Source: a virus. Taken from it: a DNA stretch of 64,000 nucleotides. Shown here in pieces: positions 25,987 to 54,700 of this stretch. The stretch lies in IMG/VR virus record IMGVR_UViG_3300025151_000020, positions 1-64,000 of that record; one strand, 5' to 3'. How positions within the stretch are numbered: the first letter of the stretch is position 1; each line of letters opens with the position of its first letter. The position numbers were made by a program, and so were the translations under genes. The notes below the pieces were generated by a model, which had not been told where the DNA came from, searched no databases, and was given only the letters and a program-made list of their open reading frames with translations.

Positions 25987-26717
25987 TAAGCATCTTCCTC
26001 CCATCCTTGTCTATCCCAAAGGTCTGGATCAACATCCAAATCATCGCCACCTAATCTATTAGTCCTATACGCCCCATCTATGGTTGTTTGGAACGGTGTT
26101 CTTGAGTTGTATTCACCTCTCATTTGAGCATGAGCTATTTCATCTAAAGCGGTTTCCATAATTTCTTTATCTGTGATTCCCGCATTCATTATAGCTCTAA
26201 CTAAACTTGCTCTTTCTATTTCGTCTAACAACTCAGTCTTTCCTGATGCAGGTTGCAGGAAAAATGACTCTGTGAAATCTCGTTGTGAATCTGTAAAGTC
26301 ACCTATGTCGTAATCCATTTTAGGAGGAACTATGATTTTTCCTTCTTTTACATCTTTCTTGAACTTGGCTGCATCCATCAATGCCCTCATTGTTGGAATA
26401 TATTCGCCCGTTAAAGGATCATACTCAACCGAAGATTGAAACTCGTCATTGTAAAAATCCTCCTTTGGGCCACCCATTCCTCGGTAGTTTGATGTTTCGT
26501 AACCTCTTTCCGAATCAACTCCGAATCTATCTCCTGTTCGTGGGTTAATCATTGGGTCATTACTAAACGGGTGAAGGTAATTGTACCAATGAGGAATCCT
26601 TGAGCCACGAAATGCTAGTTGGGCATCCTTGTCTGTATATGTAGGTGGTCCATCTGTTGCTTTTGGCAACTTGAAATCAACATCTTTAACGAGATCCCAA
26701 GCCTTTTCAAAAATCAT
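25986..26717 (-). CDS. hypothetical late protein (243 aa) with IFExAW N-terminal motif
   Basis: MIFEKAWDLVKDVDFKLPKA opens a 243-residue hydrophilic protein with many Asp, Asn and aromatic residues and little regular structure before about residue 110, then helices (MRALMDAAKFKKDVKEGK, EIERASLVRAIMNAG, EIMETALDEIAHAQM). The N-terminus matches that of the small basic protein at 24121-24381. Coupled to the giant upstream gene by TAATG. Function unknown; perhaps a minor virion component. Confidence 0.5.
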   Translation of the reverse strand: MIFEKAWDLVKDVDFKLPKATDGPPTYTDKDAQLAFRGSRIPHWYNYLHPFSNDPMINPRTGDRFGVDSERGYETSNYRGMGGPKEDFYNDEFQSSVEYDPLTGEYIPTMRALMDAAKFKKDVKEGKIIVPPKMDYDIGDFTDSQRDFTESFFLQPASGKTELLDEIERASLVRAIMNAGITDKEIMETALDEIAHAQMRGEYNSRTPFQTTIDGAYRTNRLGGDDLDVDPDLWDRQGWEEDA

Positions 26718-34498: not shown

Positions 34499-37400
34499 TA
34501 CCACACCGCCCTCGCTGCAAACATCTCTTGGACATCTGCCAAACTGAATACATAATCAAAGACTCCAATCTCACCCATCGTCATGTTCCATGCCCAAATC
34601 TGGTCATTGTTCGTGTTAGTTGTGGTGTATGCAGTTGCTCCATCCGTGCAACCACAGGCCATGTTGTATGTTGAGCCATTGATTGTATAGATTGACATCG
34701 GACCGTTGGTGGCCGTTGGTGCTTGGTCAATAGCACCTGCCGCAGATAAGCCAATGAAACACATACCTGTCTGTGTTAGATCTCCGAGATACTTAGGCAG
34801 TTTCCCCTGGATTGGTGTGCCTGTGCCACCTACTAATGTATTTACTGACGATGATGTGAATGTGTGAGTGGTGTCTATCTTCTGCGTACTGCCTACATAG
34901 AACTCTTCACCACTAAGTCTGAAAGTCACATTCGTTCCTGATTTAGACATCGTGAGGTTATGCCATTTGCCCCTATGGATTCTAACTCCGTCTGCTTGAG
35001 CTGCATTTGTCACCGACCTTATGTTTGAGCCATCATGGAAAAGGAAGAAGAAGCAAGCCTGTTGGTAATTATTTCCTGTACCATCTCCCGTCACCGAGTT
35101 TTGCCCTGCTAGGTACAATCCCCAATACCTTCCGGCGGCATCACGACCTGTGATCAACGGACCGGATGCCGCTTCCACATTCGCATTGCCAAAGTTAGAA
35201 CCAAAGTTCGGTTTGAACCAGACGCTTATTGTGTAATCTCCTGTGCAATCAAAATCTCCCATCGGCCCGTACTCTTTATTCACGGCAGAGCCTGTCCAAT
35301 AGTGGGTTGCCACAGTTTGCAAACCATGAAAGTCAAGCCCTTTAGATGTAGTATCAACTGAGTAAGCAGGACCATTCTGCACATCCATTGTTGCGTGAGC
35401 ACCTGTTTTTATTGATGCCACCTCAACACCTGCATCAACTGCCGCTAATCCACTTACACCCGTCAAAGTGTGAGGACTACCGCCTGTACTCTTTCCTGTG
35501 TATGTGAAGAAATCTCCACCTGCAATTGCATTGTTCGTGCCACTTGATTCAAAGTCAGTAGCATCAACAACATTGAGTGTGCTTCCACTTGAGTAATTAC
35601 TTTGCACAGTCGTTGCGGCCTTCCCTCTTGATACTCTTAGAGGAGAGGCATAAATCGCTTCCGTCAGATCCTGTCCTTGATTGTATGATGCGTTGGCATA
35701 ACCAACCTCCTGATCCAATCTAGCATACAGAAGACATCTTTTGAGAGAATTGCCTTCCTCCTTCAAACGATGATGTATTCCTTGCAATGTATCCTCATTG
35801 ATGGTGTCGTTGTTCGTTATATCTGTGAAGTCCAATACCGCAGAAGCCGTGCTTACCTCATGTAGGTTTTGAAAGCCGGAGAACCCTGTTGGCCCTTTGG
35901 AATAGTGATGAAGGAAATCATCGCTATAATCATTTGATGTTCCATCGCTTATGTCAAAGGTGACTCCTGTGTGTCCTCCTCCAAAATACACAATGCCCTC
36001 CTCTTCTGTGCCAGGATATAACAATTCAACTTCTATTCCGTCTATTGCGTTACCATCCGAATCATAGAACAACTCAATGAAATCAGTAAGACTACCATAT
36101 GGCACTATACTCCTAATCATAAAAGCATTAGTCACTACATCTGACGATAAGGTAGTTCTCTGTTGGTCTATTCCTTGAAACGATGCTAATGCACCCTTGA
36201 CTCTAAGCACACCCTGCATCAATGGACCAGGAGTCTTTGTAATACGCTTGAGGTAATCAGTTGCCGTGATGCTAACTGCAAGGTGATTTATGTCTGTATC
36301 ACTTGAGGGGTTAAATGCTGACAGGGTAGGAGATGTCATATCTGGAGCAGTTGCACTTGCACCAAGCAATGTTTCTGCGGTAGGGCTTGATACTGTCGTA
36401 ACCGTAAATGATCCGCCTAGTCCGTTATAAGACCTCAAATTATTAGCAGAATCAAGGGTACTGCCCGCAACAGCTCCTTTGAATGTACTAATTGGAACAA
36501 ATGTTTCTCCGTCTGCACCGATTGGCATAGGAGCTGCGAATGAGTTGGTCTGATACAACCTACTGTTAGTGGTTATAGGAGCACCGTATCCTACTACCTG
36601 TGCGGGCTTGTAGGCATATGGTGTTCTATTGCTAAGTCTAACATTGAAATTACGCCCCGATGCACCAGGGATTGTGCTATGGATCACTATTGAGATTCCC
36701 GATTCACCATCTCTGCTTTCAGTAGCAGTTCCTACGAATGCTCGGACATAACCCATGTGCGTTCCTGTATTCGTGTCAGTTGCAGATACAGGGAATATCG
36801 CAGGAGGGTCAAAGGCACTACCTCCTGTACTATTCTTCGCTTGAGGATGACCAGCCATGTTGATTCTCCTTATGACCTCCTCTACACAGACATTGAAATC
36901 AGAGGTGGTATTTGCTATTGAGTTGAAATCAATATCCAACGGCCTAACATATTCTAGTGCAGAACCATCGGATTTCTTTCCCTTCAATGAAAGATAACTT
37001 GTCTGACAGAGTATGGGATGCAAGGATTGCCTGTCATTTGCCGACTCGTGTGCCGATTGTACATCCCACTCAAAAGCCTCCATGTTCGGTCCGTCTAGGA
37101 TTAGTATTCTCGCACTATTATTCGGATCTGCATGAACTGCATCTGCATTCAATCCTATGATAGCCTTTACAGACTCCCCCAATGCTTCGGCTACAAGTAT
37201 TCGATCTGATAGTCCTAAAGGCGTTTCACCCGAAATTATTCCTGGTATATCCACTACTGACAATATGATCGGAGAAGAGTCATTGGCAACGGTAGTATTG
37301 GTATCCACCACTATGAATCCGCCAAGCGTTACAGTCATACCTGCATCTATGTTTCCTAGATTGCTACTTTCATTGCTTGATGTATCAAGTGGATTCCAGG

Positions 37401-40400
37401 TTTCAGAAGTTGTGATGGTCAGAGAAGTTCCGTTGTTGTATGCGGCTTTGGCGACAATACCATATCCACTATTCAAGACACCTTCTCCTATTGTGACATA
37501 GAAGTTGGTAGCACAATTGGCTTGAAGCCCTCTTTCTCCTGTGCTATTCAAGAATGCAGAGGCATCATCCACATTCAATGTACCACTACTGTACGAAGTG
37601 ACTACTGCTTGAACGGATGGTCTTTGACACCTTATGAGTGTCCTAGACGCAGCTAGCCAATCATACAGTTGGTCTGTAACCTCAAGGGATGCTATGGGGC
37701 TATGTTGCCCCCAATCAACCGCAAACCTAGATTCGTTCTCTCTCATCTCTGGTCGGTTTATCGCCATTGTACAATCAATACTCATCTTGAATGATTTGTC
37801 TGATGGTATTGGCGTTCTCGCATCGTTATCAGAAGCCAACAAACTATCCACATCATAGAACATAGAAGGGAATAATGGCAATTCAGTCAAGGCTCTAGTG
37901 GATGCGTAGTAAGTTGAAGTCTGCTTATCATTACGGACAGACGCATTTCCTGATCCTACAATCTTGTCCTTCCAACCAGGCATGAAAGGATGCTCCGCAA
38001 AGACGGGTTGGATATCCACTCCTCCTTGACCCAAGCCTCCCAAAGTCATTGTAACTGTGGGAGTTCCAAGATCGCCAATCTCTTTCACAGGTGTTCCTTG
38101 ACCTAAATTAAAATCCCTTGTAGAGCGATGGTCTATGATATCCATCAAAAGAGAACGGCCTTTGATAGATACCTTTGATTCATCTTCACCGCCTAATTGA
38201 GGAGTTATCTCTTCGACCCTGCCTCTCATCAATACTTTCTCAACAGTTGCTTGGAGAACATCAAGAGGGGAGTTTGAAGAATGCGACACATCATCAAGCA
38301 TAGCAAAACTTGTTCTCTTTGCTGGATGAACTAAAACGAAGTTGGCATTCCCCGTCAGCTCATTGTCAATGACATCCATAAATGAAAGATTGGATCGTCT
38401 AAATGATGAGGGAGTAACTTTGTCATCAGTATGCGTCTTCCTATTACTGCCACCCCCTCCTACTATGTGCATGATGTGGTAATCAGAGTTGCTTGTATCA
38501 TCAGGAGTGTTTGTGCTTGGTATCGCCTTTGGTATGGAATATCCTCCTATTCCTGTGCCTAAACCATATACTGTGTCCTCAATATTGATGAAGGGAGAAG
38601 GAGTGATGTCACCTGTTGGATTGGATGACAGGGTGTGTGATGCAGGTTTATCGTTGAAACTGCTTGTAGGAAGGCTCACAAGACCTCCAGGTGCAGTTAC
38701 TGTGAGAGTTATAGCAGAGGCATCTGTCTGATTGCCCGAATAAGGCCGTCTAAGCCAATCTGAGAGTGTTCGGCCACCAAAGACGGCACTACCACAAGGA
38801 ACGGTCTTAGACACGACTAGATAGGCCGCATTTCCCGTAGCATGATCAGGTTGGAACTTAGTGCTAACATCTGCCGTTGCTAGGCTTGTACCTGCGACCA
38901 CTTCTCCTGTCAAGTCTATCGCATTGTAATGAACTTGAACCTGCCTCGGACCACCTGCACTAATCAATACAGAAGGGGAGTCAATTATGGCAATTCTGCT
39001 AGTGTCTTCGGGAGTTAGGTGTCTAATGTAATTATCATTTGTTGGCGAGCCATTTACGAAATCAGCAGTATGGTCTGTATCCAAACCTTTCAACATGAAT
39101 GGTTTTACATTGCTAACTGCAATAGCGACTATCTCATCCCTTGTTGAGGCATACACATTCTGACTGAGTGAATTGTCATAGAAACCAACGCCCGCCTCAG
39201 TCACTATTCGATTGAATACGTTTGAGCTACTACTGCCCGAATCAGTTGCACCGATTGTTGATGCTTTGTTGATTACCTTTGATATCTCTCCATGAAATAC
39301 CGATTCTGTGACTTTTACTCTTTCATTCTCTGTGATAAGAGTATGGATATTTACATCCTCATTAACATAATCAAAGGTGTTTGCGATCCCCTGCACCGTT
39401 TGTTTTACCACTTGTTCATCGGGTATGGGTAGCATTTTCAAAAAGAAATCTCCTTCAATCAAGTTGTATGCAGTTACCGCCCCCATGCCACCGTATGTTT
39501 CGCTTGGAGCATACAATGTGTCAGCATCCGTTGAATCTGTGCTACGACTTTTGGTTGAGAAAAAGAATGCATCATTTGAAAATCCAGAACTGTCTTCAAA
39601 TCTTTGACCCTGTGTATAATGTGCTAGAGTGAATGTATCTCTCTTTCTCTTTCTTTGTCCTGTGACTGAATCAGAAACTTCTTTGTTGCCTGGATCAATG
39701 AATAAGTCTGCCCTTCCAATTGTAAAATAAACAGGGGTGTTGTCTGTATGTGCAAATATATGTCCTTGTGTCGTTGGCAGATTATCCACCGTTCCATTTG
39801 CCGCATCGTTAGCCAAATGTACAGATGTACAATTTAGACGACTATTAGCAAAATCAATTCCGGTTATTCTAATTCGTTCTATACGATTGATAGATGGATT
39901 AAGGGTTGATGTGCTTGAAGTGGAGAGTACAGAATTATCTGAAAACCTCACATTCTGCGAATCTGGGGGCGTTATAACGCCTGTGGAGGGGCTTGTTCCT
40001 GCTTGATTGATTACCGCATTAAGCACCGTTGATTTCACACTTGAGAAATACGCTTGGTCTGTTAAGTCAAGAGTTGAAGAATACCAGGATTGGTCTTTCA
40101 CCTCTTCCAAAGGTATGCCTTGAGTCAGAGATGCTAGTTTCTCTAAAGCAGAATACCTGTCAGTAACTCCCCCTGGATTTGCAGGGTAATCTCTAATCTT
40201 GAAGTGAGTGGTGCTGAAACTATGCCCTATTGCCACCATAGGTATATCCAACAATCCATCAAGTCTGTCCGTTCCATCTCTGCCTTGATTGGTAGCTCCT
40301 GATCTTGCATGGTCAAAGAAATACACTTCGGGAATATCATAATCATCGTCAAATCTCCACAAGCCAAAGGTGTTCTGCATCTTCGTCAAGGGTTCTATTT

Positions 40401-41061
40401 TTGGATCAACAATTCCTTGAGTGATACGAATGCTCTCAATAGCACCTCGAAACTCTCCTCCTCTCCCTCCAATAAATATGTCAGATGATGATTCTTGCAG
40501 TAATCCTCCTTCCCCTCCAAGATTGAGTTCGGCTACTATATCTCCATTGATGAAACACTTAATTTCAGATTGAGTGTATTGTGCAGTTACTAGAACTAAT
40601 CCTTGTTGCCCGAATGTCAAATCTTGAGGGCGATGGGCATTTGATGAAGATGAATAGACTCCCGAATTGCTTACAGTATGAACAGGAGCATTGAATGAGG
40701 TGGATAGAGTATAGGGTCTATCGGCAGTATATACTTCAAACAGTAGTTTGCCATTAGCGAAAGGTTCTCCATACTTCAATCTAAACGATCCTGGTTTCTC
40801 AACAATCACTCCTCCATAATCAGGAACAATATATGCATCTATTGTGAAAGAGCCTCTGAGTGCGTTCAATGGATTTGATTGTGAATCAATATGTTTTCTT
40901 CCAACTTTAGTTGCATGGCTCTTTGTTGATTTGACTGTTCCTGAGAATTGCTTTGGTCTAAGGTCTATTCCCGATTCTCTATTTCTCCCCGTAGGAACAA
41001 CCAACCCATCGGTGAAACCGTTTAGACGAAGTGCTTTGCCATGAAATCTTACAATGCCCAT
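34498..41061 (-). CDS. giant tail protein with LamG-like ends (2187 aa)
   Basis: Concanavalin A/LamG-like domains at both ends. N-terminal: RGSFTIDAYIVPDYGGVIVE, LVLVTAQYTQSEIKCFINGD, SSDIFIGGRGGEFRGAIESI. C-terminal: GDYTISVWFKPNFGSNFG, RGKWHNLTMSKSGTNVTF, QIWAWNMTMGEIGVFDYVFS. Such domains bind glycans, so contact with the archaeal S-layer or surface sugars is plausible. The centre (about 300-1850) is mixed beta with no repeat I can name. It lies between the distal tail candidate and the hub giant. Its start is 2 nt beyond the upstream stop. Confidence 0.6.
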   Translation of the reverse strand: MGIVRFHGKALRLNGFTDGLVVPTGRNRESGIDLRPKQFSGTVKSTKSHATKVGRKHIDSQSNPLNALRGSFTIDAYIVPDYGGVIVEKPGSFRLKYGEPFANGKLLFEVYTADRPYTLSTSFNAPVHTVSNSGVYSSSSNAHRPQDLTFGQQGLVLVTAQYTQSEIKCFINGDIVAELNLGGEGGLLQESSSDIFIGGRGGEFRGAIESIRITQGIVDPKIEPLTKMQNTFGLWRFDDDYDIPEVYFFDHARSGATNQGRDGTDRLDGLLDIPMVAIGHSFSTTHFKIRDYPANPGGVTDRYSALEKLASLTQGIPLEEVKDQSWYSSTLDLTDQAYFSSVKSTVLNAVINQAGTSPSTGVITPPDSQNVRFSDNSVLSTSSTSTLNPSINRIERIRITGIDFANSRLNCTSVHLANDAANGTVDNLPTTQGHIFAHTDNTPVYFTIGRADLFIDPGNKEVSDSVTGQRKRKRDTFTLAHYTQGQRFEDSSGFSNDAFFFSTKSRSTDSTDADTLYAPSETYGGMGAVTAYNLIEGDFFLKMLPIPDEQVVKQTVQGIANTFDYVNEDVNIHTLITENERVKVTESVFHGEISKVINKASTIGATDSGSSSSNVFNRIVTEAGVGFYDNSLSQNVYASTRDEIVAIAVSNVKPFMLKGLDTDHTADFVNGSPTNDNYIRHLTPEDTSRIAIIDSPSVLISAGGPRQVQVHYNAIDLTGEVVAGTSLATADVSTKFQPDHATGNAAYLVVSKTVPCGSAVFGGRTLSDWLRRPYSGNQTDASAITLTVTAPGGLVSLPTSSFNDKPASHTLSSNPTGDITPSPFINIEDTVYGLGTGIGGYSIPKAIPSTNTPDDTSNSDYHIMHIVGGGGSNRKTHTDDKVTPSSFRRSNLSFMDVIDNELTGNANFVLVHPAKRTSFAMLDDVSHSSNSPLDVLQATVEKVLMRGRVEEITPQLGGEDESKVSIKGRSLLMDIIDHRSTRDFNLGQGTPVKEIGDLGTPTVTMTLGGLGQGGVDIQPVFAEHPFMPGWKDKIVGSGNASVRNDKQTSTYYASTRALTELPLFPSMFYDVDSLLASDNDARTPIPSDKSFKMSIDCTMAINRPEMRENESRFAVDWGQHSPIASLEVTDQLYDWLAASRTLIRCQRPSVQAVVTSYSSGTLNVDDASAFLNSTGERGLQANCATNFYVTIGEGVLNSGYGIVAKAAYNNGTSLTITTSETWNPLDTSSNESSNLGNIDAGMTVTLGGFIVVDTNTTVANDSSPIILSVVDIPGIISGETPLGLSDRILVAEALGESVKAIIGLNADAVHADPNNSARILILDGPNMEAFEWDVQSAHESANDRQSLHPILCQTSYLSLKGKKSDGSALEYVRPLDIDFNSIANTTSDFNVCVEEVIRRINMAGHPQAKNSTGGSAFDPPAIFPVSATDTNTGTHMGYVRAFVGTATESRDGESGISIVIHSTIPGASGRNFNVRLSNRTPYAYKPAQVVGYGAPITTNSRLYQTNSFAAPMPIGADGETFVPISTFKGAVAGSTLDSANNLRSYNGLGGSFTVTTVSSPTAETLLGASATAPDMTSPTLSAFNPSSDTDINHLAVSITATDYLKRITKTPGPLMQGVLRVKGALASFQGIDQQRTTLSSDVVTNAFMIRSIVPYGSLTDFIELFYDSDGNAIDGIEVELLYPGTEEEGIVYFGGGHTGVTFDISDGTSNDYSDDFLHHYSKGPTGFSGFQNLHEVSTASAVLDFTDITNNDTINEDTLQGIHHRLKEEGNSLKRCLLYARLDQEVGYANASYNQGQDLTEAIYASPLRVSRGKAATTVQSNYSSGSTLNVVDATDFESSGTNNAIAGGDFFTYTGKSTGGSPHTLTGVSGLAAVDAGVEVASIKTGAHATMDVQNGPAYSVDTTSKGLDFHGLQTVATHYWTGSAVNKEYGPMGDFDCTGDYTISVWFKPNFGSNFGNANVEAASGPLITGRDAAGRYWGLYLAGQNSVTGDGTGNNYQQACFFFLFHDGSNIRSVTNAAQADGVRIHRGKWHNLTMSKSGTNVTFRLSGEEFYVGSTQKIDTTHTFTSSSVNTLVGGTGTPIQGKLPKYLGDLTQTGMCFIGLSAAGAIDQAPTATNGPMSIYTINGSTYNMACGCTDGATAYTTTNTNNDQIWAWNMTMGEIGVFDYVFSLADVQEMFAARAVW

Positions 41062-41062
41062 A

Positions 41063-42292
41063 TCATATACCCACCAATTGCTCCACCGCAGTAAAGGTCA
41101 TCTCATATGACCAAAAGCCATCACCTGCACTATATGATGGGCTAAACATTGTCAGAACAACAGGTATTGCGACACCTTGTTCCAGGTATGGATTTGGCCT
41201 AATGGTTTCATTATTTACTACTATTGTTGGATCGAAAGACTTTGTATTTTGATCGGAGGAGAAGTCTGTTCCTATTCCTGATGGTATGAGATATTGCCTC
41301 AATACCTTGTTGCCATCTGTGGATGAGGCCAATGACTCATATGGAACACGAAGCCCTACGATATACTTCTTGACGACATTTGCATTATCCACTCTAAGGA
41401 ATCTTGAGGCATCTAAGGAAGCAACCCCTTCTGGTATATCCACAACTGAACCGCCTAATGCATTTGGCGAAATCAATGCCCCTCCTGCACTCATATTTGA
41501 TAGATTCAACAAATCCTGTACCTTATCTTCCATAGTCAGTTGAGTAGCTGCAACTCCTCCTACTGCATTTGTCACAAGGAATTGCTTTGTCCAATCCTGT
41601 CCTGCATTATCTTTTGATACGGTTACTGTGTGGTTGCCCGCAGAACCTACGGTCTTGTTTGTAATAGTGATTTTCTCTCCGTTGAATCCTGATCCACTCT
41701 GAGAATCTTGAGAGAGGGTTTCAAGTTGGCCGGATGATTGGGATGTGGTGAATATGTCTGAGAAGTTAGTAGTAGTTGTATCCACTTTGACTTGAGCACT
41801 TCCTAATGCAGTTGCTATTGTGTCGGAAAGGCTATCGCTACTTGTGGTTGAAGATATATTCACCACGATGATACTGTTCGTTGCAACTGTGGATGAACCG
41901 CTACCATTCTTCAACTGTATTGTAATGTCTTCTCCTAATCCTGCGTTGATTTGACCAATGCTCTTGAAGTTAATTTCAACTCCGTCTAATTCAGTTTTGA
42001 CAGTATTCCAACTACTAAACAATTCATACCAAGTTGCTTCTAATGATTGGCTACCGTTGATTGATGTGTCAATGGTGAATGCTGAACCAACACCTGGAGT
42101 CTGTTGGTCATCGTCTGTAAATATGCCTTGAAGAGTTATGCCAATCTGTGTTTGATTGAGATCAAGTGCAACACGAGTATTGAGTATTGGAAGGGGATAA
42201 GCAGTAATTATCCTGGTCAAATCAAATGTTATACTGTCTGCATCTAATTCCATGATGCTACTATCTCTTCGAATGAGTTGTATTCTTGGCAT
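41063..42292 (-). CDS. distal tail/baseplate structural protein (409 aa)
   Basis: Follows the tape measure gene directly (ATGA overlap), the usual place of a distal tail protein. Residues 1-60 (IQLIRRDSSIMELDADSITF, LTRIITAYPLPILNTRVALD) and the last 130 (VKKYIVGLRVPYESLASSTD, EQGVAIPVVLTMFSPSYSAG, EMTFTAVEQLVGI) are beta-rich. The middle has Ser/Thr-rich strands that look like an inserted Ig-like domain. Role inferred from gene order. Confidence 0.5.
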   Translation of the reverse strand: MPRIQLIRRDSSIMELDADSITFDLTRIITAYPLPILNTRVALDLNQTQIGITLQGIFTDDDQQTPGVGSAFTIDTSINGSQSLEATWYELFSSWNTVKTELDGVEINFKSIGQINAGLGEDITIQLKNGSGSSTVATNSIIVVNISSTTSSDSLSDTIATALGSAQVKVDTTTTNFSDIFTTSQSSGQLETLSQDSQSGSGFNGEKITITNKTVGSAGNHTVTVSKDNAGQDWTKQFLVTNAVGGVAATQLTMEDKVQDLLNLSNMSAGGALISPNALGGSVVDIPEGVASLDASRFLRVDNANVVKKYIVGLRVPYESLASSTDGNKVLRQYLIPSGIGTDFSSDQNTKSFDPTIVVNNETIRPNPYLEQGVAIPVVLTMFSPSYSAGDGFWSYEMTFTAVEQLVGI

Positions 42293-43899
42293 CAGATTCC
42301 TCTCCCATATCCACCTGATCTTGACCGTGATTTGAATACACGCTGAACTTCTTTGCTAACCGCCTTTGCAATATCTTGAGGATTGCCATTCGCACCACTA
42401 ACTGTGATATTGACTGTGTTTTCATTTAGGGTGTTATCGTTGGTTATGTTTGTAGTGCCTCCACCACCCATTCCTTCTCCTTGTATTGCAACAGGTATGC
42501 TCCTGCCATCGGGGAGTGGCACTACTGCCTCAGTACCGTGTAATATGGCAGGAAAACCACTTGATGGTCCTGATACTACTCCTCCCTTTGAGAAGCCGAG
42601 AGCACCACCAATAGATCCTCCAATAGAACCTACGAAATCAGATACGCCTCCTATTACATCTCCAAAGTCAGGAATCATGTCAAATATTTCTTGTACGGTA
42701 TCAAGAAAGCCTTCAAAGATACCTACTATTCCATCAATCGCCCATTGAATTGCATCCCCTGCTCCGTCTAACATAGTAGAGAAAGCATCGCCAACTGCCT
42801 CAATTGGAGGTGTTATGAACTCAAATATTGCATCTTTAATGCCTATCATTTTATTTATTATCCAATCAACTTTGTTGCCCGCTACTTCGGCCAATGCGTC
42901 AAATGGATTCTCTGCCGTGAATATGTAAAGGAGATCGTTTAGGAATGTATTTATCCAGGAAAGAAGTCCTGTAAAGATACTAAAGATGCCTGTTATAACC
43001 CACTCTATTAAGCCTAAGAATGTCATGAAAGCACCTCCTGCACCCGCATCTCCTAAAGCCCCGCCAATCTCCACCGCAAGCCAAACGACTAACTCAATCA
43101 ATTTGCCGAATATGACACCTGCTACTTCAAACAACAGACCGAGAGTTTCTATGAATAGCACTATGAAATCAACTATTCCACTATCAACTAAGAAACTTCC
43201 AAACCTGTTGAATGCAGAGGTTAGACCGGATGTCACACTACCTCCTGTTATACCTAAATCTTCAAACGCCTTTTGGAATGAACCAAATATTGCACTTATA
43301 CCTGCCCAGATGCCCATAAATACCGCAAGCAATGCATGGAAAACTCCGTGATCGTACATTGCTTCAACCACACTCAACCATGTTGATATCCACCAAGTAA
43401 TTATTTCCACCATCAAAGTGACTACTGATACGAAGAATGTTCCAAACTCGGTAAGAACCGACTTCGCCATTTCAATAGCTGGTCCGAAATCAAAAGCCAT
43501 TATCTGTTGAATGACTCCTATGAGGATGTCTTTCAAACCGCTTAAAGCGGATATCAATTCGCCTGTACCACCACCTGCCGAACCAACAGATGAAGTGAGA
43601 TATGCAAAGACGGATATTACTGTGAATAATATTCCAATCATCCCTAGAAAGGACATTCTTATGCCATCAACTGTCTTCTCCATAATTCCTAAAGGAACTA
43701 ACAGACCCTTCATCGGAGCGAGAACTGCTCCAATTCCTGTTTTTAGTTTGAGCCATAGATTGTAAAACGGGCCAAGAAGTTTATTGAAGATTACAACTTT
43801 AGTATAGGATTTTGTCATGGCTTTGCCAAAGTCTTTGTCCAAAGCCATACCTGCGGCAGAAACTTGTTTTGTCCAATCCGCTAAGTTTGTATCAGCCAT
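42292..43899 (-). CDS. tape measure protein
   Basis: A 535-residue protein with many hydrophobic helices (RMSFLGMIGILFTVISVFAY, FFVSVVTLMVEIITWWISTW, FHALLAVFMGIWAGISAIFG) and the C-terminal signature FSKGGVVSGPSSGFPAILHG, TEAVVPLPDGRSIPV, known from siphovirus tape measure proteins. It sets tail length and reaches the host membrane during DNA delivery. At about 1.5 angstrom per residue, its length implies a tail near 80 nm if all of it is extended. It overlaps the tail assembly chaperone extension by 8 nt, as expected. Confidence 0.85.
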   Translation of the reverse strand: MADTNLADWTKQVSAAGMALDKDFGKAMTKSYTKVVIFNKLLGPFYNLWLKLKTGIGAVLAPMKGLLVPLGIMEKTVDGIRMSFLGMIGILFTVISVFAYLTSSVGSAGGGTGELISALSGLKDILIGVIQQIMAFDFGPAIEMAKSVLTEFGTFFVSVVTLMVEIITWWISTWLSVVEAMYDHGVFHALLAVFMGIWAGISAIFGSFQKAFEDLGITGGSVTSGLTSAFNRFGSFLVDSGIVDFIVLFIETLGLLFEVAGVIFGKLIELVVWLAVEIGGALGDAGAGGAFMTFLGLIEWVITGIFSIFTGLLSWINTFLNDLLYIFTAENPFDALAEVAGNKVDWIINKMIGIKDAIFEFITPPIEAVGDAFSTMLDGAGDAIQWAIDGIVGIFEGFLDTVQEIFDMIPDFGDVIGGVSDFVGSIGGSIGGALGFSKGGVVSGPSSGFPAILHGTEAVVPLPDGRSIPVAIQGEGMGGGGTTNITNDNTLNENTVNITVSGANGNPQDIAKAVSKEVQRVFKSRSRSGGYGRGI

Positions 43900-44263
43900 C
43901 CTGCTCCCTCAATTTCTGGTTCATCAGATCGAAACTATCTTGTAGGGTGGCACTATCACTTGTTGTCCGTATATGCCTCCCTTTATTTTGATTTCCTTGA
44001 GCGTTATAACGAGATCTTTGTTTTTCAAGCCGTTTTGACTCCTCTGCTTGCTTTTCTTGATGTGCCCGAACAAAGTTATACAGAAAATATACACGCTCAG
44101 GTGGTTGGTCATCCCAAGAGTGTGGAGGGCAATTAAAATGACTACCCAATACATAGGTTATAGCCTGGTAAGAGAGCATGATGCTCTGTTTAGGAGTGAA
44201 GTGACCTACCCTGCCATCTGAATTGAGAAACCTTCGGAGTTCAGGGTAGGTTATTCCAAAGGG
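43892..44263 (-). CDS. tail assembly chaperone, T-type extension made by -1 frameshift
   Basis: This frame is open from the slippery site at 44257-44263 to 43892 with no stop. It starts GITYPELRRFLNSDGRVGHF after the slip, then TPKQSIMLSYQAITYVLGSHF and a charged C-terminus (HQEKQAEESKRLEKQRSR). An ATG at 44179 lies inside it, but residues before that ATG are also coding-like, so the fused product (about 239 residues with the G part) is the likely form. The layout is that of lambda G and G-T. Such chaperones hold the tape measure protein before tail tube polymerisation. Confidence 0.72.
   Translation of the reverse strand, partial: PFGITYPELRRFLNSDGRVGHFTPKQSIMLSYQAITYVLGSHFNCPPHSWDDQPPERVYFLYNFVRAHQEKQAEESKRLEKQRSRYNAQGNQNKGRHIRTTSDSATLQDSFDLMNQKLREQDG
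44204..44251 (-). promoter_or_regulatory. frameshift-stimulating stem-loop
   Basis: ACCTACCCTG (+ strand 44204-44213) and CAGGGTAGGT (44242-44251) form a perfect 10-bp stem with a 28-nt loop in the mRNA. The stem begins 5 nt after the slippery heptamer, the usual distance for a -1 frameshift stimulator. The G-frame stop TAA (44251-44253) falls at the stem base. Confidence 0.7.
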
Positions 44264-44610
44264 GCTTGCTCACCGCCAGCGAATGCTTCCATCAAAGATT
44301 CAAGTGATGGCAATACCTTGATTAGTTCCTTGCCCACTTCAGGACTTAATTTTAGAATGTCTTTCTTGGATATTGCAGGATCGGTTTTCTCTATGCAATT
44401 TGTAAGAACATACGAATAGTATCCTCCAAAATCAATTGAAGGAGCAGGTTCGCCATCAACCATTTGGAAATCAACAAACCTGGATATCGCTTCTTGTTGC
44501 TGAATCCAAGTGAGTGGTTTTACGAAAACCACTAGAACGCCTTTTTCTGTTTCAACCTCGTGCCTAACCGAACTTGATACGGTTAGAAAATCATTCGCCT
44601 TCAACGCCAT
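44251..44610 (-). CDS. tail assembly chaperone (G-type, 119 aa)
   Basis: Begins MALKANDFLTVSSSVRHEVE, then VLVVFVKPLTWIQQQEAISR, FGGYYSYVLTNCIEKTDPA, and ends SLESLMEAFAGGEQAPLE. Helical with a strand pair at the start, like many siphovirus G-type chaperones. Position between the tail tube candidate and tape measure, plus the frameshift site, decides the call. The ATG at 44610 is preferred because AAGGAGATG lies at a good distance; the ATG at 44619 sits on that tract. Confidence 0.75.
   Translation of the reverse strand: MALKANDFLTVSSSVRHEVETEKGVLVVFVKPLTWIQQQEAISRFVDFQMVDGEPAPSIDFGGYYSYVLTNCIEKTDPAISKKDILKLSPEVGKELIKVLPSLESLMEAFAGGEQAPLE
44257..44263 (-). promoter_or_regulatory. -1 ribosomal slippery heptamer C CCT TTG
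   Basis: In the G frame the codons are GCC CCT TTG GAA TAA. The heptamer C-CCT-TTG fits X XXY YYZ exactly. After slipping, tRNAs re-pair on CCC TTT and translation continues in the T frame with GGA ATA ACC. It lies two codons before the G stop. Confidence 0.75.
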
Positions 44611-44998
44611 CTGTTTCATCTCCTTCTGTTAGAGGCGTTTCGTCTGTGGCACTTGCCTCTGTTGCGGTATCTGCTTCAACTAGGGTTTCAACCTGGTCTG
44701 AGCTAGTTGTGGAATTGGTGGCATCCCATGCCCTCAATCTATCGATCAACTGTTGTTTGTTTCCATAGATTGGCTCTCCCGCCTGTTGTAATAAGACCTT
44801 TAATTCGGTGACAGACATCTCTTCGTAACCATCTGTATAGACAATTTCTTCTTCTTCCTGTACTAATGGCGTGTAAGCACCTTCAACTGCTATTTCACTT
44901 GAAGATAGCCCTGGTCCATCAGTTATCTCATCGCCATTGATTGTCCAATCAATCCTTGCTCTTGTGCCATTGACCGAAACGAATCCCGTTAGCCTCAT
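44591..44998 (-). CDS. tail-module protein with SAP domain (135 aa)
   Basis: The first 60 residues are beta-rich (TGFVSVNGTRARIDWTINGD). Residues about 60-90, MSVTELKVLLQQAGEPIYGN plus KQQLIDRLRAW, form a SAP motif, usually a DNA- or RNA-binding helix pair. The last 45 residues are acidic, Thr/Glu-rich and disordered. A SAP domain between tail tube and chaperone genes is unexpected; it may act as a protein-protein module here. It overlaps the chaperone gene by 20 nt. Confidence 0.6.
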   Translation of the reverse strand: MRLTGFVSVNGTRARIDWTINGDEITDGPGLSSSEIAVEGAYTPLVQEEEEIVYTDGYEEMSVTELKVLLQQAGEPIYGNKQQLIDRLRAWDATNSTTSSDQVETLVEADTATEASATDETPLTEGDETDGVEGE

Positions 44999-45037: not shown

Positions 45038-47209
45038 TCATAATATGAAATATGGATTGTTTTCTGTCACCTTCATGTGGCGAACCACCAACTCAACATC
45101 AGCGAATATTGGCCCCTTGTCTGATGGTATCTGATGATCCGCTTTTGTGATGGTGTAATCCTCCAAAGTTATAGTAGCGGTTTGCCGAGTAGTTGCACTA
45201 CCTGCTTTGGTCATTGTGAATGTAATGTCGTTTGTGTTCTGGTGATGCCTTCGAGTTCTGACTTCATCCCATAGTCTATCATCCTCAACTAAAGCCTTGA
45301 ATGAGAATGTGTATTCCCTCACTCCTTCTGTGATATCCAATGGAGTCTGCGTTGCTCCGTGTTGAACCTGATCTGTATCGGATGTTGCACCTTCAAAGCC
45401 TCTAATGTACCATCTAGCCGTGTTAGTGTTTGCTAGTCCTAGACTAAACTCTGTTGCTCTAAGCACAGGTCTTCCAAATATCTGTATGCTTATATCTTGG
45501 AATAGATATGGTTTTTCACCATCAACCGCTATACCGCTAACCTTTCTGTTCGCTGCGGTGTTTGCAGTATTGTCAAACATTCGGTGCGGGGAGAACATAT
45601 CGCCTGTATCAGTATAGTGTCTTGCAGCTTGATACTCACAACTAATCTTCAATTCTCCCTCAGTATCTGCTGATATATTTGCAGATCCAACCTTGCAACC
45701 GCTATACAATCTAAGCAGTTGTTCTCCACCAGGAGTAGTATCGCTATTCCTAAACGATTGCTCAACGGTGAAAGAGGGTACAACATTGTGTCCGAAGAGT
45801 GTATGTGTGACTCCATTTTGAAGTTCTTTTGTTGATGCTACAATGTTTGGACTACCTTTTGATGCATCAGATGTGTATCTCAATCTATCAACACCACAAG
45901 AAGCAACTGCGTGAGCAAAGGTAAATGGTTCTTCAACATGAACATGATCTCCACCAACTGCAATTACTCTCCTGATCTCATGCTTGAATATTGTGGGTGG
46001 CGTTCCATCTTGACCTGGAATCTGGTGTGTGTCTTTGTCAATAATCTGAATGTAATCTCCCACCGTGAACATTGCACGGACTGTCGCCCCCACATCCACT
46101 CTTGTATCTCCAATGGATACTGCACCTGCAAGTGGTGGCATGAGAACAACACACTTGTTAGAAGCAAGAGCCAATGTAGCTGCACCAGAATCAATGTCTG
46201 CTATGCCTTGAACATCATTGGAAGATATTGATGCGTATGATGCGTATTTCGTAGTGCCACTATCATTCACTTTGAGGACACCTGCGGCAGTTCCGCTTGT
46301 AACTTTGAAGACGGCTTTTGAAGTCAGAGTAACATCATCGCTACTTGTTGATGCTACCTTAGCACCAATCATGAAGTTAGTTCCTGTTGTAGTTGAGAGG
46401 CTATCTAAGCCCGTAAGAACAGTTCCTGATGATGCTATTGCAGTATAATCGCCCGCAGTTCCAGAAGCCGATTGTAATTCTGCTCTACCCGTTACGGTTG
46501 CATCATCGCCTAAATTGAATAATTTCTCAGAAATAGTGTTACTCCCGCTTGCTAGGGTGGCTAGAGAACCGTTGCTCTTTGCGGTATGACCTCCTAATGC
46601 GTACTTCAACCACCTCATACTGTGAGCATTTACCTCTATTGAACCCCCTTCTAAGGTTTCACGCCCACTTGTAATTACATTGACATCCCTGCCCATGCCA
46701 ATAACGTGTTGTTGCCTAACATCAATTGATGGCTCAGGCAGAGCAAACTCGTTTAGTAATCCTAGAAATTGATCGGTTCGTACTTTTTGACTGTTGGTTG
46801 CATCACTCATAGATGAATCAAAAGTGGGGCAACGGTATGCCTCTATCACTAAACTATCTGATGAACCTGCCGCTTGGCTTGCAGATGTAGCCAAAGCGGG
46901 TTGAACGGTAATTGTTCCAGCAGTTGTGTCATTTGCCGTTATGTAGTATGTTCTTCTAGTTGAAGCGTAATCATCAGAAGCGAAATTAGTGCCTCCTGTA
47001 ATCTTAACAACACAACCGACCAATATATTATCAGGGATTTCAACATCAGTTCCTGATCCTGTGTGCCAATAAGCTCCTGTTCCTACTGTAATTAGACTCG
47101 TACTATTGGTGCTTGAAGTGAGTGTCCAGGTAGCACCATCACACCGTAGCCCTGTTTCTTTACCGAATGATACTTCGGCCAAATCTCCTTTGTATAGTGC
47201 ATTCGCCAT
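45038..47209 (-). CDS. putative major tail (tube) protein with added domains (723 aa)
   Basis: In the place of a major tail protein, just ahead of the chaperone/tape measure genes. Residues about 145-200 (LLNEFALPEPSIDVRQQHVI, GRDVNVITSGRETLEGGSIE, NAHSMRWLKYALGG) look like the core of tail tube proteins, and so does the C-terminal GVREYTFSFKALVEDDRLWD. At 723 residues it is about twice the usual size. The extra parts are Ser/Thr/Ala-rich strands, probably decoration or Ig-like domains on the tail surface. A structural protein is near certain; tube identity is moderate. Confidence 0.6.
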   Translation of the reverse strand: MANALYKGDLAEVSFGKETGLRCDGATWTLTSSTNSTSLITVGTGAYWHTGSGTDVEIPDNILVGCVVKITGGTNFASDDYASTRRTYYITANDTTAGTITVQPALATSASQAAGSSDSLVIEAYRCPTFDSSMSDATNSQKVRTDQFLGLLNEFALPEPSIDVRQQHVIGMGRDVNVITSGRETLEGGSIEVNAHSMRWLKYALGGHTAKSNGSLATLASGSNTISEKLFNLGDDATVTGRAELQSASGTAGDYTAIASSGTVLTGLDSLSTTTGTNFMIGAKVASTSSDDVTLTSKAVFKVTSGTAAGVLKVNDSGTTKYASYASISSNDVQGIADIDSGAATLALASNKCVVLMPPLAGAVSIGDTRVDVGATVRAMFTVGDYIQIIDKDTHQIPGQDGTPPTIFKHEIRRVIAVGGDHVHVEEPFTFAHAVASCGVDRLRYTSDASKGSPNIVASTKELQNGVTHTLFGHNVVPSFTVEQSFRNSDTTPGGEQLLRLYSGCKVGSANISADTEGELKISCEYQAARHYTDTGDMFSPHRMFDNTANTAANRKVSGIAVDGEKPYLFQDISIQIFGRPVLRATEFSLGLANTNTARWYIRGFEGATSDTDQVQHGATQTPLDITEGVREYTFSFKALVEDDRLWDEVRTRRHHQNTNDITFTMTKAGSATTRQTATITLEDYTITKADHQIPSDKGPIFADVELVVRHMKVTENNPYFIL

Positions 47210-48752: not shown

Positions 48753-51700
48753 TCACCCTAATACTATCCACTCGCTACTATCAACTGCAATGAAGGTCTT
48801 CGCTTCGTATCTTGTAGTGATTGTTTGGTTGCTAGTTGAACCATTCATTGTATCCGATCCGTTTGCTGAGATAGTCACAGTTCCTGTTGTGTTGCTAATG
48901 ATGACATACTGTTCGCCTCTGTTTGGAGAAGCAGGTAGGGTAAATGTCATTGCACTTGTTGCTACTAAATACAATCCGGCATAGTCGTCATAGTCTAATG
49001 TTTGGTTGCTTGAGAATGTTCGCATCTGCCCTGCCTTTGCCGCAACACCCGCAGCAGGAGTGTCACCATGAGCGAACTTATTGACACCTACTGACAGAAT
49101 CTCTCTTTGACTATCATTGACCATAATCCTGAATCGCATCTCTCCATCTGCATTGCCACTTGTTTGATCACGAATTGTCATTATGATATTTCCATAATCT
49201 CTGTAATCGTGTATCGCTTCTACACTACCTACATCCAACATACTTGAGTCTGCACCTGTAAATCTGATATTTCCAATATCGTCATCATCAGAAACGTCAC
49301 CTTGATCAATGTATCTGATAAGATGCATTATTGGTCCTCTTGCAGTTGTAGTATCATCGTTAGTGAATACGAAATGCCCTAACCCCTTCGTCTTGAATGA
49401 CAACCCAACGTCTGTTTCATCCCCTGTTGCCTCAAGTCCTGGTCCGGTTATGCGACCTGCTGAAGTTGTGTTGTTTGAGTTATGGACTACATCTGTTCCA
49501 AACAGAGTACCAGCAGTAGTATCAGAGATACCATTCCATATCTTGATGTACGAGTTTGCACTTGTTGTCTTACCAAACAGTAGTTGCTCGTTGCTAGAAT
49601 CATCAAGAATACCATGATTATCATCAATTATGATGTTTTGACTGTTAGTATCCAAGTTTCCTCCGATTGTGACTCCTGCATTGAAAGTGGCAGCTCCCGC
49701 TTCTGAACCATCTAAAATGAGGGCATTGACATTGGAGTTGTTGTCCTTGACCATGAAATACATATCTGCATCATTTACAACTGCTTTAATCTTGAAATGA
49801 CCGCTATCATGTGCAAGGTTTGCATAAGTCGTTCCAGCATCTTTGAGTCTTATATCTGCACCATCAGCATCAAGAGATATATCTCCCGAAGAATCTATTG
49901 TGAAGTTACCGACAACGAGTGTGTCAAGGCTCGATATAGTCAAATCCCCACTTGAGTATGTGACATCCGATAGATCGTTGAGTGCAGAAGCACCACCACC
50001 ACCTGCATTTGCATCCACATATGCCTTGATGGATTGCTGAGTTGCTAGAGCAGTATCGGAGTCAGAAGCCATGTTATCCTCATCTAGGATTGTGGTGACT
50101 CTACTGTTAGCACCGCCTAATCTGACACCGCTATCGCTTATGTCCAAGCGTGATGAACCGCCCGTTTCGAATGTCTGTGTATCTGTGCCGAATGCTATTG
50201 AGTTGTTCGTATCGTTCGAATGCCTAATCTCACCAGGGATTGTTAGATTGCCACTAAATATTGCCTCACCTGCATTAGATGCGTCAAATCGCAAGAAGTC
50301 AGTAGTGACACCACCATCAATCCCTCTGAGATAGAGGTCTTTGTCGTCAGTTGTGTTCTGCAAGACAATATCGCCCGAAGATATCATTGCGATACGGAAG
50401 TATTCTGTTCCTGCCGATTTGAATCTCCAGGTGGGGCTACCTGCATCAAAGGATATGTCGCCTGATCCATCAATGGTGAAATTGCCTGTAACATCAATCT
50501 CTGGTGTGGAATCTAAGTTGAATTGGAATCTCGTAGTTCCATCGTCTTTGAAGTATATCTGATCTCCGGCGGCATCAAATGTGAGATCACCAGACGAATC
50601 TATTGTGAAGCCACCGACAACGAGCGTGTCTAAACTGCTAATTGTTAGATCACCACTTGAATAAGTCACATCGGATAAGTCGCCAAGAGCAGAAGCACCA
50701 CCTGCATTGTTATCCACATAATCCTTGACGGCGGCAGAAGTAGGCAAAGTGGTGTCGTTGTCATTTGAACCGATGCCTTCTGATTCTGTGACTACTGCTG
50801 ATGCAGCTAAGTCTGATACTGTTAGGTCTGCAATATCGCTTGTGTATGCAAGAGTAGAGGCAGTTCCCCAATCCGTATCATCTTGGTCTGCTCGGTAGTG
50901 ATAGATTCTCTTTGTACTGTTCTTAGCGAATGCCAATAAGTTTGCATCTCCACCTGTATGTCCTGTGAATGTGTCCAATACCAAAACATCAACATAATCA
51001 GATGCGTTAGTAGTAGAGCCATCTTCCAAACCTGTCTTTGTTGAGAATCTTCCTGATATTTCTCTAAGCGTATTTGCCAAGTCTTCAGGAGCAAAATCCC
51101 TATCATCATCTGTTTTCAAGTATGGAGCGTGTATAGTTCTGAAGTCTAAGTCAAACGGATCTGCGTCTGATCCAGGGGAAATATCGGAGTAGTTGATGTC
51201 TATACTCGTATCTCCACTAAGGAACTTGATTTCTTCCGAGTTGGAGATAGATACTTCTGTTCCATCATCATCCTCAATTACGAAGGTCATGCCCGTAGTA
51301 TATCCGTATGATAGAATCTTATCCTCAATAGCGGCAGAAGTCATTATCGATGTGTCATCGTTAGAGAAGGATTCGCTACTCAATTGAATACTACCTGCGG
51401 CTATTTCAGATACAGTCAAACCGCCTACATTGAGGGTATCTCCGCTAAGACTAATCCCTGTTCCAGCAACTAAATTGGTATCGTCACTAATATCTATTTC
51501 ACCGAGCGTAATCGCTTGGTTTGATATGCTAAGGTAATCGTGACTAGAAGTAACCAATGTTACATCCGTTGAGTTATCCGTACCTGCCGCATCAACACCG
51601 AGATTGCTTCTTGCAGTTGCTGCATTGGCCAAGTCGGACAAATTGCTAGACTTGGCTAGTTTAGTGCCTATGCTAGTAGTAATTGTTGTTGAGAATGAGG

Positions 51701-54700
51701 CATCATCACCTAATGCGGCTGCCAATTCATTCAATGTGTTCAAAGCCGCAGGTGCGGAATCAACAATTCCTGCAACTTCCGCATCCACATATGCCTTGAT
51801 TGACTGTTGCGATGCAGCAGCGGTGGCACTATTGGAACTCATATCATCTTGATCTAACAGAGTCAATTGTGTGTTGGTATCCGTTGAAGCAATGGTTACT
51901 GCTCCTCCTGATTCAGTTATTGTTATGTTACTACCTGCGGTAAATGCAAGAGTTTCGCTTGATCCTAATGTGTTGCCTCCCGCAGTTACTGTTCTGAATG
52001 TGTTAGTATCGGTTTGATTTTCCCAAGTTACTGTTCCACTACCATTTGTTCTCAATACTTGATTTGCTGAACCGTCTGCGGTTGGGAATGTAAATGCGTC
52101 ATTAAATGTAACTGCACCTGTTTCCAAAACTTTGAATATCTGAGTATGACTACCTGCATGACTTGTTTTTCCATTTTTGGTTATAGCAAAGAAAGTATTA
52201 TCGCTATTGTTATTGTTAGAATCTAATTGCATATAGATTTCTTCGGGTGCTTTAATTAGAATAGAATAGTTTTCCTCAAACATACCTAAGTCTTGTCTAT
52301 CTCTAAATTGATAGCCGTCATAGGGTGGTGTGTTGTCATTAGCCCCACTTACGCCAGGAATATTTAGCCCGCCTGTGAATGTTGCTATATTGTCGCTTTG
52401 CGTTCCTATGGTAAAATTACCACCTAAGTCAGCGTTAAGAGCAGTTTTAACATCAGCAGTAGTTGTAGTGTTAGTATCGGTAGCAGCGAGTGTCAAAGTT
52501 CCTGCGGCATCATCATAAGTCTTAGTGATGTTAGACCCTGCCGTAATTACTCCTGCTACAAAGTCTTCAACCTGCTCTTGTGATAATTGTGTATTGGTGT
52601 CTGTTGAGGCAATAGTAACTGCTCCACCTGATTCTGATATGCTGACATTGCTTCCTGCCGTGAAAGCAAGAGTTTCACCTGATCCAAGAGTATTGCCACC
52701 AGCAGTTACGGTTCTAAATGTGTTAGTATCGGTTGATGCAAATGTAATCGTGTCATTACTTGCATTCGTTGTAATGGTAACATTTGACCCCTCGGCAAAG
52801 GTTAGCGTGTCTGCGGCGGCATCGGCTACAACATCAGATTGACCGCTAACTGAAATAGTCTTGAATGCCTCTCCTGCCCCACCCGATGCAGTAGTGTCAA
52901 TGGAATCCTGCAAGTTATCAAGAGTCATGTACTTCCAGGAGGAAGCAGACTCATCCCAAAGCAGAATCTTATCATCAGTAGCATCCGTGCTTTCATTCAA
53001 CTCAGACAAGTTTGCAGGGTCGTCTAACTTGAGGCCACTTGCCTCTTGAGCCAAACCATTACCTGCCGCAACGCTGAAAGTGGTAGAGGATAGGGCTATA
53101 CCACTACCTGCTGAATACTCGGTGTTAGTATCGGTTGATGCAATAGTCACCGCACCGCCACTTTCTGTAATGGTGACATTACTACCTGCCGTAAATGCGA
53201 GAGTTTCACCACTTGCTAATGTATTTCCGCCAGCAGTAACCGATCTAACGGCAGTAATGTATGAACCGAGATCACTAATTTGTGACTCCGTAATTGATAG
53301 TGCTGCTTGATGCTGAGTTACGCTTCCCTCAGATATTCTTCCATTGGCAAAAGTTCCGCTTGTAATCTTCGAAGTTGCCAAAGAGGGTATGTCTGATGCA
53401 GATAAACCACCGTCTAGTATGTTTATCTCCGCTAATGATGCAGTTATACCTAGATTCGTAAGGGCGTTTCCTTGTTGTGTTGAGTTCAATCCCTGGTTGC
53501 TAACATCAACTCTCAACCTGTTGCCCAATGATGTTGCGGTTGTTGTTGAGAATGACGCATCATCTCCAAGAGCTGCAGCGAGTTCGTTTAGAGTATTCAA
53601 TGCACCAGGAGCAGAATCAACAAGACCCGATACTTCTGCATCAACATATGCTTTGATGGATTGCTGAGAGGCGGCCGCAGTAGCACTATTGGAAGCAAAG
53701 TTGTCCTCATCAAGAAGAGATAATTGTGTATTAGTGTCGGTGGATGCAATAGTTACTGCACCTCCACTCTCCGTTATCGTCACATTAGATCCCGCAGTAA
53801 AGGCAAGAGTTTCAGTTGAAGCAAGAGTGTTGCCACCTGCGGTTATGGTTCTAGGAGTCATGTCATCCACTACCAAATCAATAGTGCCGTCACCATCCTC
53901 ATAGGTAGCAGATATTCTCGTTTCGGTATTTCCAGAGAACATTCCGCCTACTATGTCTTGAACCTGTTCGGTGGAGAGTTGTGTGTTAGTGTCGGTGGAA
54001 GCAATGGTAACGGTATCGCTAGATGCATTAGTCGTAAGTGTCACATTAGAACCCGCTGCAAATGTTAGCGTATCGGTTGTTCCATCTGCAACTACATCGC
54101 TTTGCCCAGATACTGATACGGTGCTGAAAGCGTTCTGATTGTTCTCTCCACCTGCACCTGCGGCAATCCAGGTAAATCCACCACTAGCCGAGTCGTAACT
54201 CAAAATGTAGTTATCAACAGGGGAGTTCGTTGCATTGAGGTGCGATTCATCAACTGCACCGTCTTTCAATTCAGAACTATCAACTGCATTTGCATCAATC
54301 TGTCCTGCGGCAACTGAGTCAAGAGTAGCCAATGCACCAAGAGCCGTGCCGTTCAATGTGATAGCATCTGCTTCCACCGTACCATCAAAGTAAGCATTCT
54401 TGAATTGTAGCGATGCCGTTCCAAGATCTATGTCGTTATTCGTCACGGGTTGTATTGCACCATTGGCGAAATCAACCTGGTCCTCACCATCAACAACGAC
54501 TCGTAATACATCAGCACTACTTACTTGTGAGAATCGCAAGCCTATATCGGTATTACCATGAAATGAGTAGGCAGGGAAGGTGTTTGAACCGCTACCAACT
54601 CGTACTATTTCTCCTACTTTCAAAATCTCATTAGCCGAATCAAAGGTAAAATTAGCATCGCCCGCTATGTTCGTGCTATTGCCAAACGCTACTTGTGTAT

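What the first reader, a model, noticed from the sequence alone, without database searches (positions are those of the whole stretch)
44204..44263. Textbook -1 frameshift signal joining tail assembly chaperone genes
Seen directly: the heptamer C-CCT-TTG in frame (X XXY YYZ), two codons before the TAA stop of the upstream gene; a 5-nt spacer; then a perfect 10-bp stem (ACCTACCCTG / CAGGGTAGGT) with a 28-nt loop. The -1 frame is open from the heptamer to 43892 and makes a charged T-like extension. Known: lambda-type G/G-T chaperones use this strategy. Inference: the virus makes a 119-residue and a fused product of about 239 residues. A complete heptamer-spacer-stem signal in a likely archaeal virus is a good test case for archaeal frameshifting.
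Basis: partly seen in the sequence, partly recalled or inferred. Interest (0 to 1): 0.78.

Follow-up and report, generated by a model that had tools for sequence, protein, structure and literature searches.

The report
Conserved frameshift signal in marine magroviruses
A probable virus of ocean archaea makes two versions of a tail-building helper protein by letting some ribosomes slip back one base at a fixed seven-base signal, which is unchanged in every one of the 56 distinct related sequences found and is followed in most of them by a hairpin at a fixed distance; this known phage trick had previously been described for archaeal viruses mainly in salt-lake viruses.

Summary
By itself the heptamer is chance-level (9 copies in the window, 7.7 expected), but comparison settles it. 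All 122 related loci fetched through the flanking proteins (56 distinct sequences, 39 clusters) keep CCCTTTG exactly 10 nt before the upstream stop. The zero frame is conserved up to the heptamer and the -1 frame from it (dN/dS about 0.13 before the candidate ATG, which many relatives lack). The hairpin exceeds a codon-preserving null, with its 5' arm at a fixed 6-7 nt (a minority about 10) after the heptamer; a same-register group shows five pairs with double changes. A distant clade has weak or no hairpin. The genes lie between tail-tube and tape-measure genes, and G folds like annotated tail assembly chaperones. The virus is magrovirus-like (group II chaperonin, tail tube homologous to HVTV-1/HCTV-5), so an archaeal, probably Poseidoniales, host is likely but unproven. 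Frameshifted chaperones were already predicted in haloarchaeal viruses, so this is a new member of a known kind, with an unusually clean signal. Not shown experimentally.

The parts
44251..44619 (-). G-like tail assembly chaperone gene (zero frame; 122 aa from ATG 44619 or 119 aa from ATG 44610, the start matching relatives)
   Evidence: fold match to tail assembly chaperones; weak PHROG chaperone matches
44257..44263 (-). slippery heptamer C CCT TTG
   Evidence: invariant in 56 distinct sequences, always 10 nt before the zero-frame stop
44251..44253 (-). zero-frame stop TAA, one codon after the heptamer
44252..44256 (-). 5-nt spacer GAATA
44242..44251 (-). 5' arm of the putative stimulatory hairpin, ACCTACCCTG
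44204..44213 (-). 3' arm of the putative stimulatory hairpin, CAGGGTAGGT
43892..44263 (-). T-like extension in the -1 frame (PFGITYPEL..., 123 codons), fused to G by the frameshift
42292..43899 (-). tape measure protein gene; its ATG overlaps the end of the T frame (ATGGCTGA)
   Evidence: (PHROG tape-measure families, best E 1.1e-11)
45038..47209 (-). tail tube protein; residues 475-714 match HCTV-5, 470-714 match HVTV-1

Best explanation
This is a programmed -1 ribosomal frameshift site between the G-like and T-like parts of a tail assembly chaperone in a magrovirus-like tailed virus. Most ribosomes translate G and stop at TAA one codon after the heptamer. A minority, with tRNA-Pro on CCU and tRNA-Leu on UUG and delayed by a hairpin whose base is about 5 nt downstream, slip back one base to CCC UUU and continue GGA AUA ACC..., making a G-T fusion of about 239 residues. 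By analogy with lambda, G coats the tape measure protein and the T part recruits the tail tube subunit. Shown: anatomy, conservation, coding constraint, hairpin covariation in relatives, synteny, fold match of G. Inferred: that slippage happens, its efficiency, that the hairpin stimulates it, and the protein roles.
For: Heptamer in all 122 fetched loci (56 distinct sequences, 39 clusters at 85% nucleotide identity), always 10 nt before the zero-frame stop, although the loci were found through protein stretches away from the heptamer. The codon ending in heptamer base 1 encodes six different amino acids but always ends in C (39 of 39; C is about 22% of third bases in G), and Pro CCT plus Leu TTG are always used although these are 34% and 25% of their codons elsewhere in G. 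Zero-frame conservation ends and -1-frame conservation begins at the heptamer. Third-position excess in the T frame from +15; dN/dS about 0.13 before the ATG. Many relatives have no ATG before codon 52-61 of T. Hairpin: codon-preserving null, mean z -1.55 over 39 clusters, Stouffer -9.7; stem score peaks for 5' arms starting 6-7 nt (and 10) after the heptamer, Stouffer 9-10, falling to 1.2 by 14 nt; covariation in 14 sequences, 5 of 9 pairs with double changes, exceeding shuffles and slid registers. Synteny: tail tube, tape measure. G fold matches annotated chaperones.
Against: No protein or ribosome data. The distant LDED-type clade (L099, L108, L112, L113, L126, L131 and others) has no strong hairpin, so it may not be essential. 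Clusters are related, so summed z-scores overstate significance. T has no recognised family or confident fold match. No match of G to a solved chaperone structure.
Confidence: 0.93

Rival explanations
1. T is a separate protein started inside its own frame (ATG 44179 or a TTG/GTG near the overlap), with no frameshift.
For: The window has an in-frame ATG at 44179, and coupled re-initiation is common in prokaryotes.
Against: The 28 codons before that ATG are under purifying selection (dN/dS about 0.13). Many relatives have no ATG before codon 52-61. No strong Shine-Dalgarno sequence is visible before the candidate starts printed. It does not explain the invariant heptamer.
Confidence: 0.04
2. 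The frameshift occurs, but the hairpin is incidental: its complementarity is a by-product of the protein sequences encoded in both arms, and the heptamer alone suffices, as may be so in the distant clade.
For: The distant clade lacks a strong hairpin; the pairing register changes between subclades (sum 49 to 61).
Against: A codon-preserving null rejects it across the set. The excess is confined to 5' arms starting about 6-12 nt after the heptamer. Covariation in the same-register group exceeds shuffled and slid controls.
Confidence: 0.2
3. The two frames are joined by transcriptional slippage rather than ribosomal slippage.
For: It would also give a fusion.
Against: C CCT TTG has no run longer than the 3-4 C and 3 T bases, and such slippage typically needs long homopolymer runs (general knowledge). 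The hairpin position fits ribosomal spacing.
Confidence: 0.02
4. The record is a bacteriophage, so the signal is an ordinary bacterial-host G/GT site.
For: No archaeal PolB, MCM or PCNA found in the record with Pfam models; no provirus or host genome match.
Against: Group II chaperonin, best match archaeal thermosomes; a TCP-1/cpn60 chaperonin is also present in 11 of 15 relatives (group assigned only in the window). Tail tube matches only haloarchaeal Druskaviridae among 50,697 phage records. ERCC4-type nuclease and HMG-CoA lyase-like gene, the latter and a chaperonin also reported in Aoguangviridae (PMC10768690).
Confidence: 0.1

Closest known systems
Tail assembly chaperone (gp128/gp129) of haloarchaeal virus HCTV-5 and its counterpart in HVTV-1 (Druskaviridae)
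   Same: Same gene order (tail tube, chaperone, frameshifted chaperone, tape measure), frameshifted CDS annotated as a join, tail tube homologous, weak G similarity (hhalign E 0.0007, probability 27%).
   Different: HCTV-5 heptamer is GGGAAAG, 34 nt before the stop; no detectable similarity of T.
Phage lambda gpG/gpGT and the general dsDNA-phage pattern
   Different: Different heptamer; here the heptamer is followed by a position-conserved hairpin in most lineages and the stop is always one codon away.
alpha-L-fucosidase fucA1 of Saccharolobus solfataricus
   Same: The demonstrated cellular archaeal -1 frameshift, with a heptamer and putative stem-loop (PMC8211752).
   Different: Cellular enzyme gene, A AAA AAT heptamer, not widely conserved.
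Aoguangviridae / Magrovirales (e.g. Aobingvirus yangshanense)
   Same: Genome size near 92 kb, chaperonin, HMG-CoA lyase, and a gene labelled TAC (PMC10768690).
   Different: The held papers searched contain no mention of a frameshift in these viruses; the reference genome was not available for comparison.

Membership tests
Frameshifted tail assembly chaperone (lambda G/GT type) | Two overlapping frames located between tail tube and tape measure genes | tested here: met
Frameshifted tail assembly chaperone (lambda G/GT type) | Conserved slippery site in the overlap, second frame in -1 | tested here: met
Frameshifted tail assembly chaperone (lambda G/GT type) | Second frame under coding selection before any likely own start | tested here: met
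Frameshifted tail assembly chaperone (lambda G/GT type) | G part has the tail assembly chaperone fold | tested here: met
   E 8.2e-6 to HHTV-2 chaperone, 9.4e-4 to a Bacillus phage chaperone (predicted structures); best PHROG E 5.8e-4; no solved structure matched
Frameshifted tail assembly chaperone (lambda G/GT type) | T part resembles known T domains | tested here: inconclusive
   no significant match; T domains are generally divergent
Frameshifted tail assembly chaperone (lambda G/GT type) | Fusion product made at low ratio and needed for tail assembly | not testable with these tools
   needs proteomics or genetics
Canonical -1 frameshift signal with stimulatory RNA structure | Hairpin 5-9 nt downstream of the heptamer, supported beyond coding constraint | tested here: met
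   absent or weak in one distant clade
Magrovirales / Poseidoniales viruses | Chaperonin, approximately 90-110 kb genome, oppositely transcribed morphogenesis and replication modules | tested here: met
Magrovirales / Poseidoniales viruses | Virus-encoded PolB replisome with PCNA/MCM | tested here: inconclusive
   no match in this record, 2 of 12 relatives with PolB, none with PCNA_C; record may be incomplete or proteins divergent

The most novel reading that the evidence does not exclude
Magroviruses use a lineage-wide fixed recoding module, C CCU UUG plus one codon plus stop plus a hairpin starting at or near the stop codon, in which ribosomes of Poseidoniales respond to a downstream hairpin as bacterial and eukaryotic ribosomes do, possibly with termination at the adjacent stop acting as part of the stimulus. 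It would be the most strongly conserved hairpin-stimulated -1 frameshift known in Archaea.
Probability: 0.5. Interest if true: 0.65.

Novelty: new member of a known kind. Interest (0 to 1): 0.5.

Why it matters
In Archaea one cellular -1 frameshift has been studied experimentally (fucA1) and a handful predicted in haloarchaeal viruses (PMC8211752, PMC5009743). An invariant heptamer with a position-fixed, covarying hairpin across about 39 divergent marine virus clusters is strong comparative evidence that archaeal ribosomes use the classical heptamer-spacer-structure signal, and gives many natural variants, including hairpin-poor ones, for testing it. It also means that magrovirus annotations that list the two frames as separate genes, or only one, should be corrected to a joined product.

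Tried and rejected
Pfam and PHROG scans of the window's G and T alone gave no strong hits. blastn and tblastn of the region and of G against named phages gave nothing. Solved-structure fold search for G was uninformative, as was the T fold search. The genome-contig scan gave no provirus. Named magrovirus references were not held and several key papers (Pietila 2013, Sencilo 2013, Philosof 2017, Prabhu 2025) could not be read. The literature searches for CCCUUUG and CCCTTTG as a frameshift site found no prokaryotic use of it. Three loci (L082, L083, L133) first seemed to lack the site; that was a frame error in the match start, and one search finds the site in each. Independent start at ATG 44179 and transcriptional slippage were rejected (see rivals).

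Full report
Observation. The heptamer alone is expected by chance (9 copies in the window against 7.7 expected), so its presence proves nothing alone. The local fold is -20.9 kcal/mol, z -2.86.

Context. The T frame ends inside the start of a 535-residue tape measure gene. Upstream lie a SAP-domain protein and a 723-residue protein whose C-terminal third matches the tail tube of haloarchaeal viruses HCTV-5 and HVTV-1, the only kind of hit among 50,697 phage records. In HCTV-5 and HVTV-1 the next genes are an annotated frameshifted tail assembly chaperone pair and the tape measure: the same order. The HCTV-5 site is GGGAAAG, 34 nt before the stop.

The virus. The window is part of a 93,310-base virus record. 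It carries a group II chaperonin closest to archaeal thermosomes, an ERCC4 nuclease, an HMG-CoA lyase-like gene, and MCP, portal, protease and terminase genes. Eleven of 15 relatives also carry a TCP-1/cpn60 chaperonin (that model does not separate group I from group II). This fits magroviruses, in particular the published description of Aoguangviridae (PMC10768690). No PolB, MCM or PCNA was found in this record, so family placement is tentative and the host is inferred.

Conservation of the signal. Using profiles of G and T separately, scans of viral contigs fetched 53 and 69 loci. All 122 loci examined (these plus the window) carry CCCTTTGG-N-N-stop with an open G frame upstream and an open -1 frame downstream; they comprise 56 distinct sequences and 39 clusters at 85% nucleotide identity. 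Many loci are two fetches of the same contig, so 56 and 39 are the meaningful numbers. In all 39 clusters the heptamer starts 10 nt before the zero-frame stop. The codon whose last base is heptamer base 1 encodes S, D, G, N, A or R but always ends in C; Pro and Leu always use CCT and TTG. If both peptides PL and PFG were required at the protein level the heptamer would be forced, but the -1-frame P and F are read only if slippage happened earlier, and the -1 frame is closed by a stop 1-10 codons upstream of the heptamer in the relatives and, in nearly all others, only slightly further upstream. The conservation is therefore best read as a slip site.

Coding of the -1 frame. G is conserved up to PL-x-stop and T from the heptamer on. 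Substitutions fall mainly in G-frame third positions before the heptamer and in T-frame third positions after it. Many relatives have no ATG before codon 52-61 of T.

The hairpin. Against a null that keeps the T peptide and codon usage, folding downstream of the heptamer is stronger than expected: mean z -1.55 over 39 clusters. The excess of stems is confined to 5' arms starting about 6-12 nt after the heptamer, with peaks at 6-7 and 10. Clusters share ancestry, so the summed scores are not probabilities. The pairing register differs between subclades (window group sum 57, the largest group 54, others 49-61). In the 14-sequence same-register group, 83% of cells pair, 5 of 9 pairs have changes on both sides (including U-A to A-U and C-G to U-A), and all measures exceed shuffles and slid registers; the group was chosen by its register, which favours the paired percentage but not the shuffled comparison of changes. 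RNAalifold finds the same stem unprompted. In the window's own close group the core CCUACCC/GGGUAGG is invariant. A distant clade with an LDED insertion has only a weak short hairpin or none.

Protein identity. AlphaFold gives G a fairly confident model (pLDDT 79.6) that matches annotated tail assembly chaperones in BFVD: HHTV-2 (E 8.2e-6), Bacillus phages, and weakly Mu gp41. Eight of 14 G proteins weakly match a chaperone PHROG (best E 5.8e-4). T is helical and unrecognised.

Prior knowledge. Reviews state that -1 frameshifting of the G-T type is proposed for HVTV-1 and HCTV-1, -2 and -5, with +1 in HSTV-2 (PMC5009743, PMC8211752), and a -1 site G GGA AAT in Hardycor1 (PMC7911831). A tail assembly chaperone is already labelled in Aoguangviridae. 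No held paper mentions a frameshift together with Poseidoniales viruses and tails, but several key papers could not be read. I therefore file it as a new member of a known kind, with a heptamer not listed among the archaeal-virus sites I could read and unusually good comparative support for a stimulatory hairpin.

Noticed in passing
44591-44998 (-): Gene between tail tube and chaperone encodes a SAP domain (Pfam E 4.7e-9), a nucleic-acid-binding motif unexpected in a tail module; a similar protein sits there in the relatives.
   Followed up: partly
45038-47209 (-): Tail tube protein has about 470 residues before the part that matches HVTV-1/HCTV-5 tail tubes, which are much shorter proteins.
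   Followed up: no
43892-43899 (-): T-frame stop and tape measure start overlap as ATGGCTGA, suggesting translational coupling.
   Followed up: no
44251-44263 (-) and all relatives: The zero-frame stop is always exactly one codon after the heptamer in 39 of 39 clusters; no requirement known to me explains this.
   Followed up: partly
L099, L108, L112, L113, L126, L131 (downstream of the heptamer): The clade with a 3-residue insertion (LDED) in T lacks the strong hairpin, though several members have a short CGAGGA/TCCTCG hairpin starting 10 nt after the heptamer.
   Followed up: partly
5442-7025 (+): Group II chaperonin (thermosome-like) encoded by the virus.
   Followed up: yes
26717-34504, 34498-41061, 48753-58391 (-): Three giant open frames (2595, 2187 and 3212 aa); the last matches tail-fibre families, the second has no PHROG match.
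   Followed up: partly
L025:16277-17185 (-): HMG-CoA lyase-like gene, also reported in Aoguangviridae.
   Followed up: no
17339-19438 (+): Large C-5 cytosine methyltransferase (699 aa) with two matched stretches.
   Followed up: no
whole record G000: No DNA polymerase B, MCM or PCNA detected by Pfam models, unlike published magroviruses; PolB in only 2 of 12 relatives tested.
   Followed up: partly
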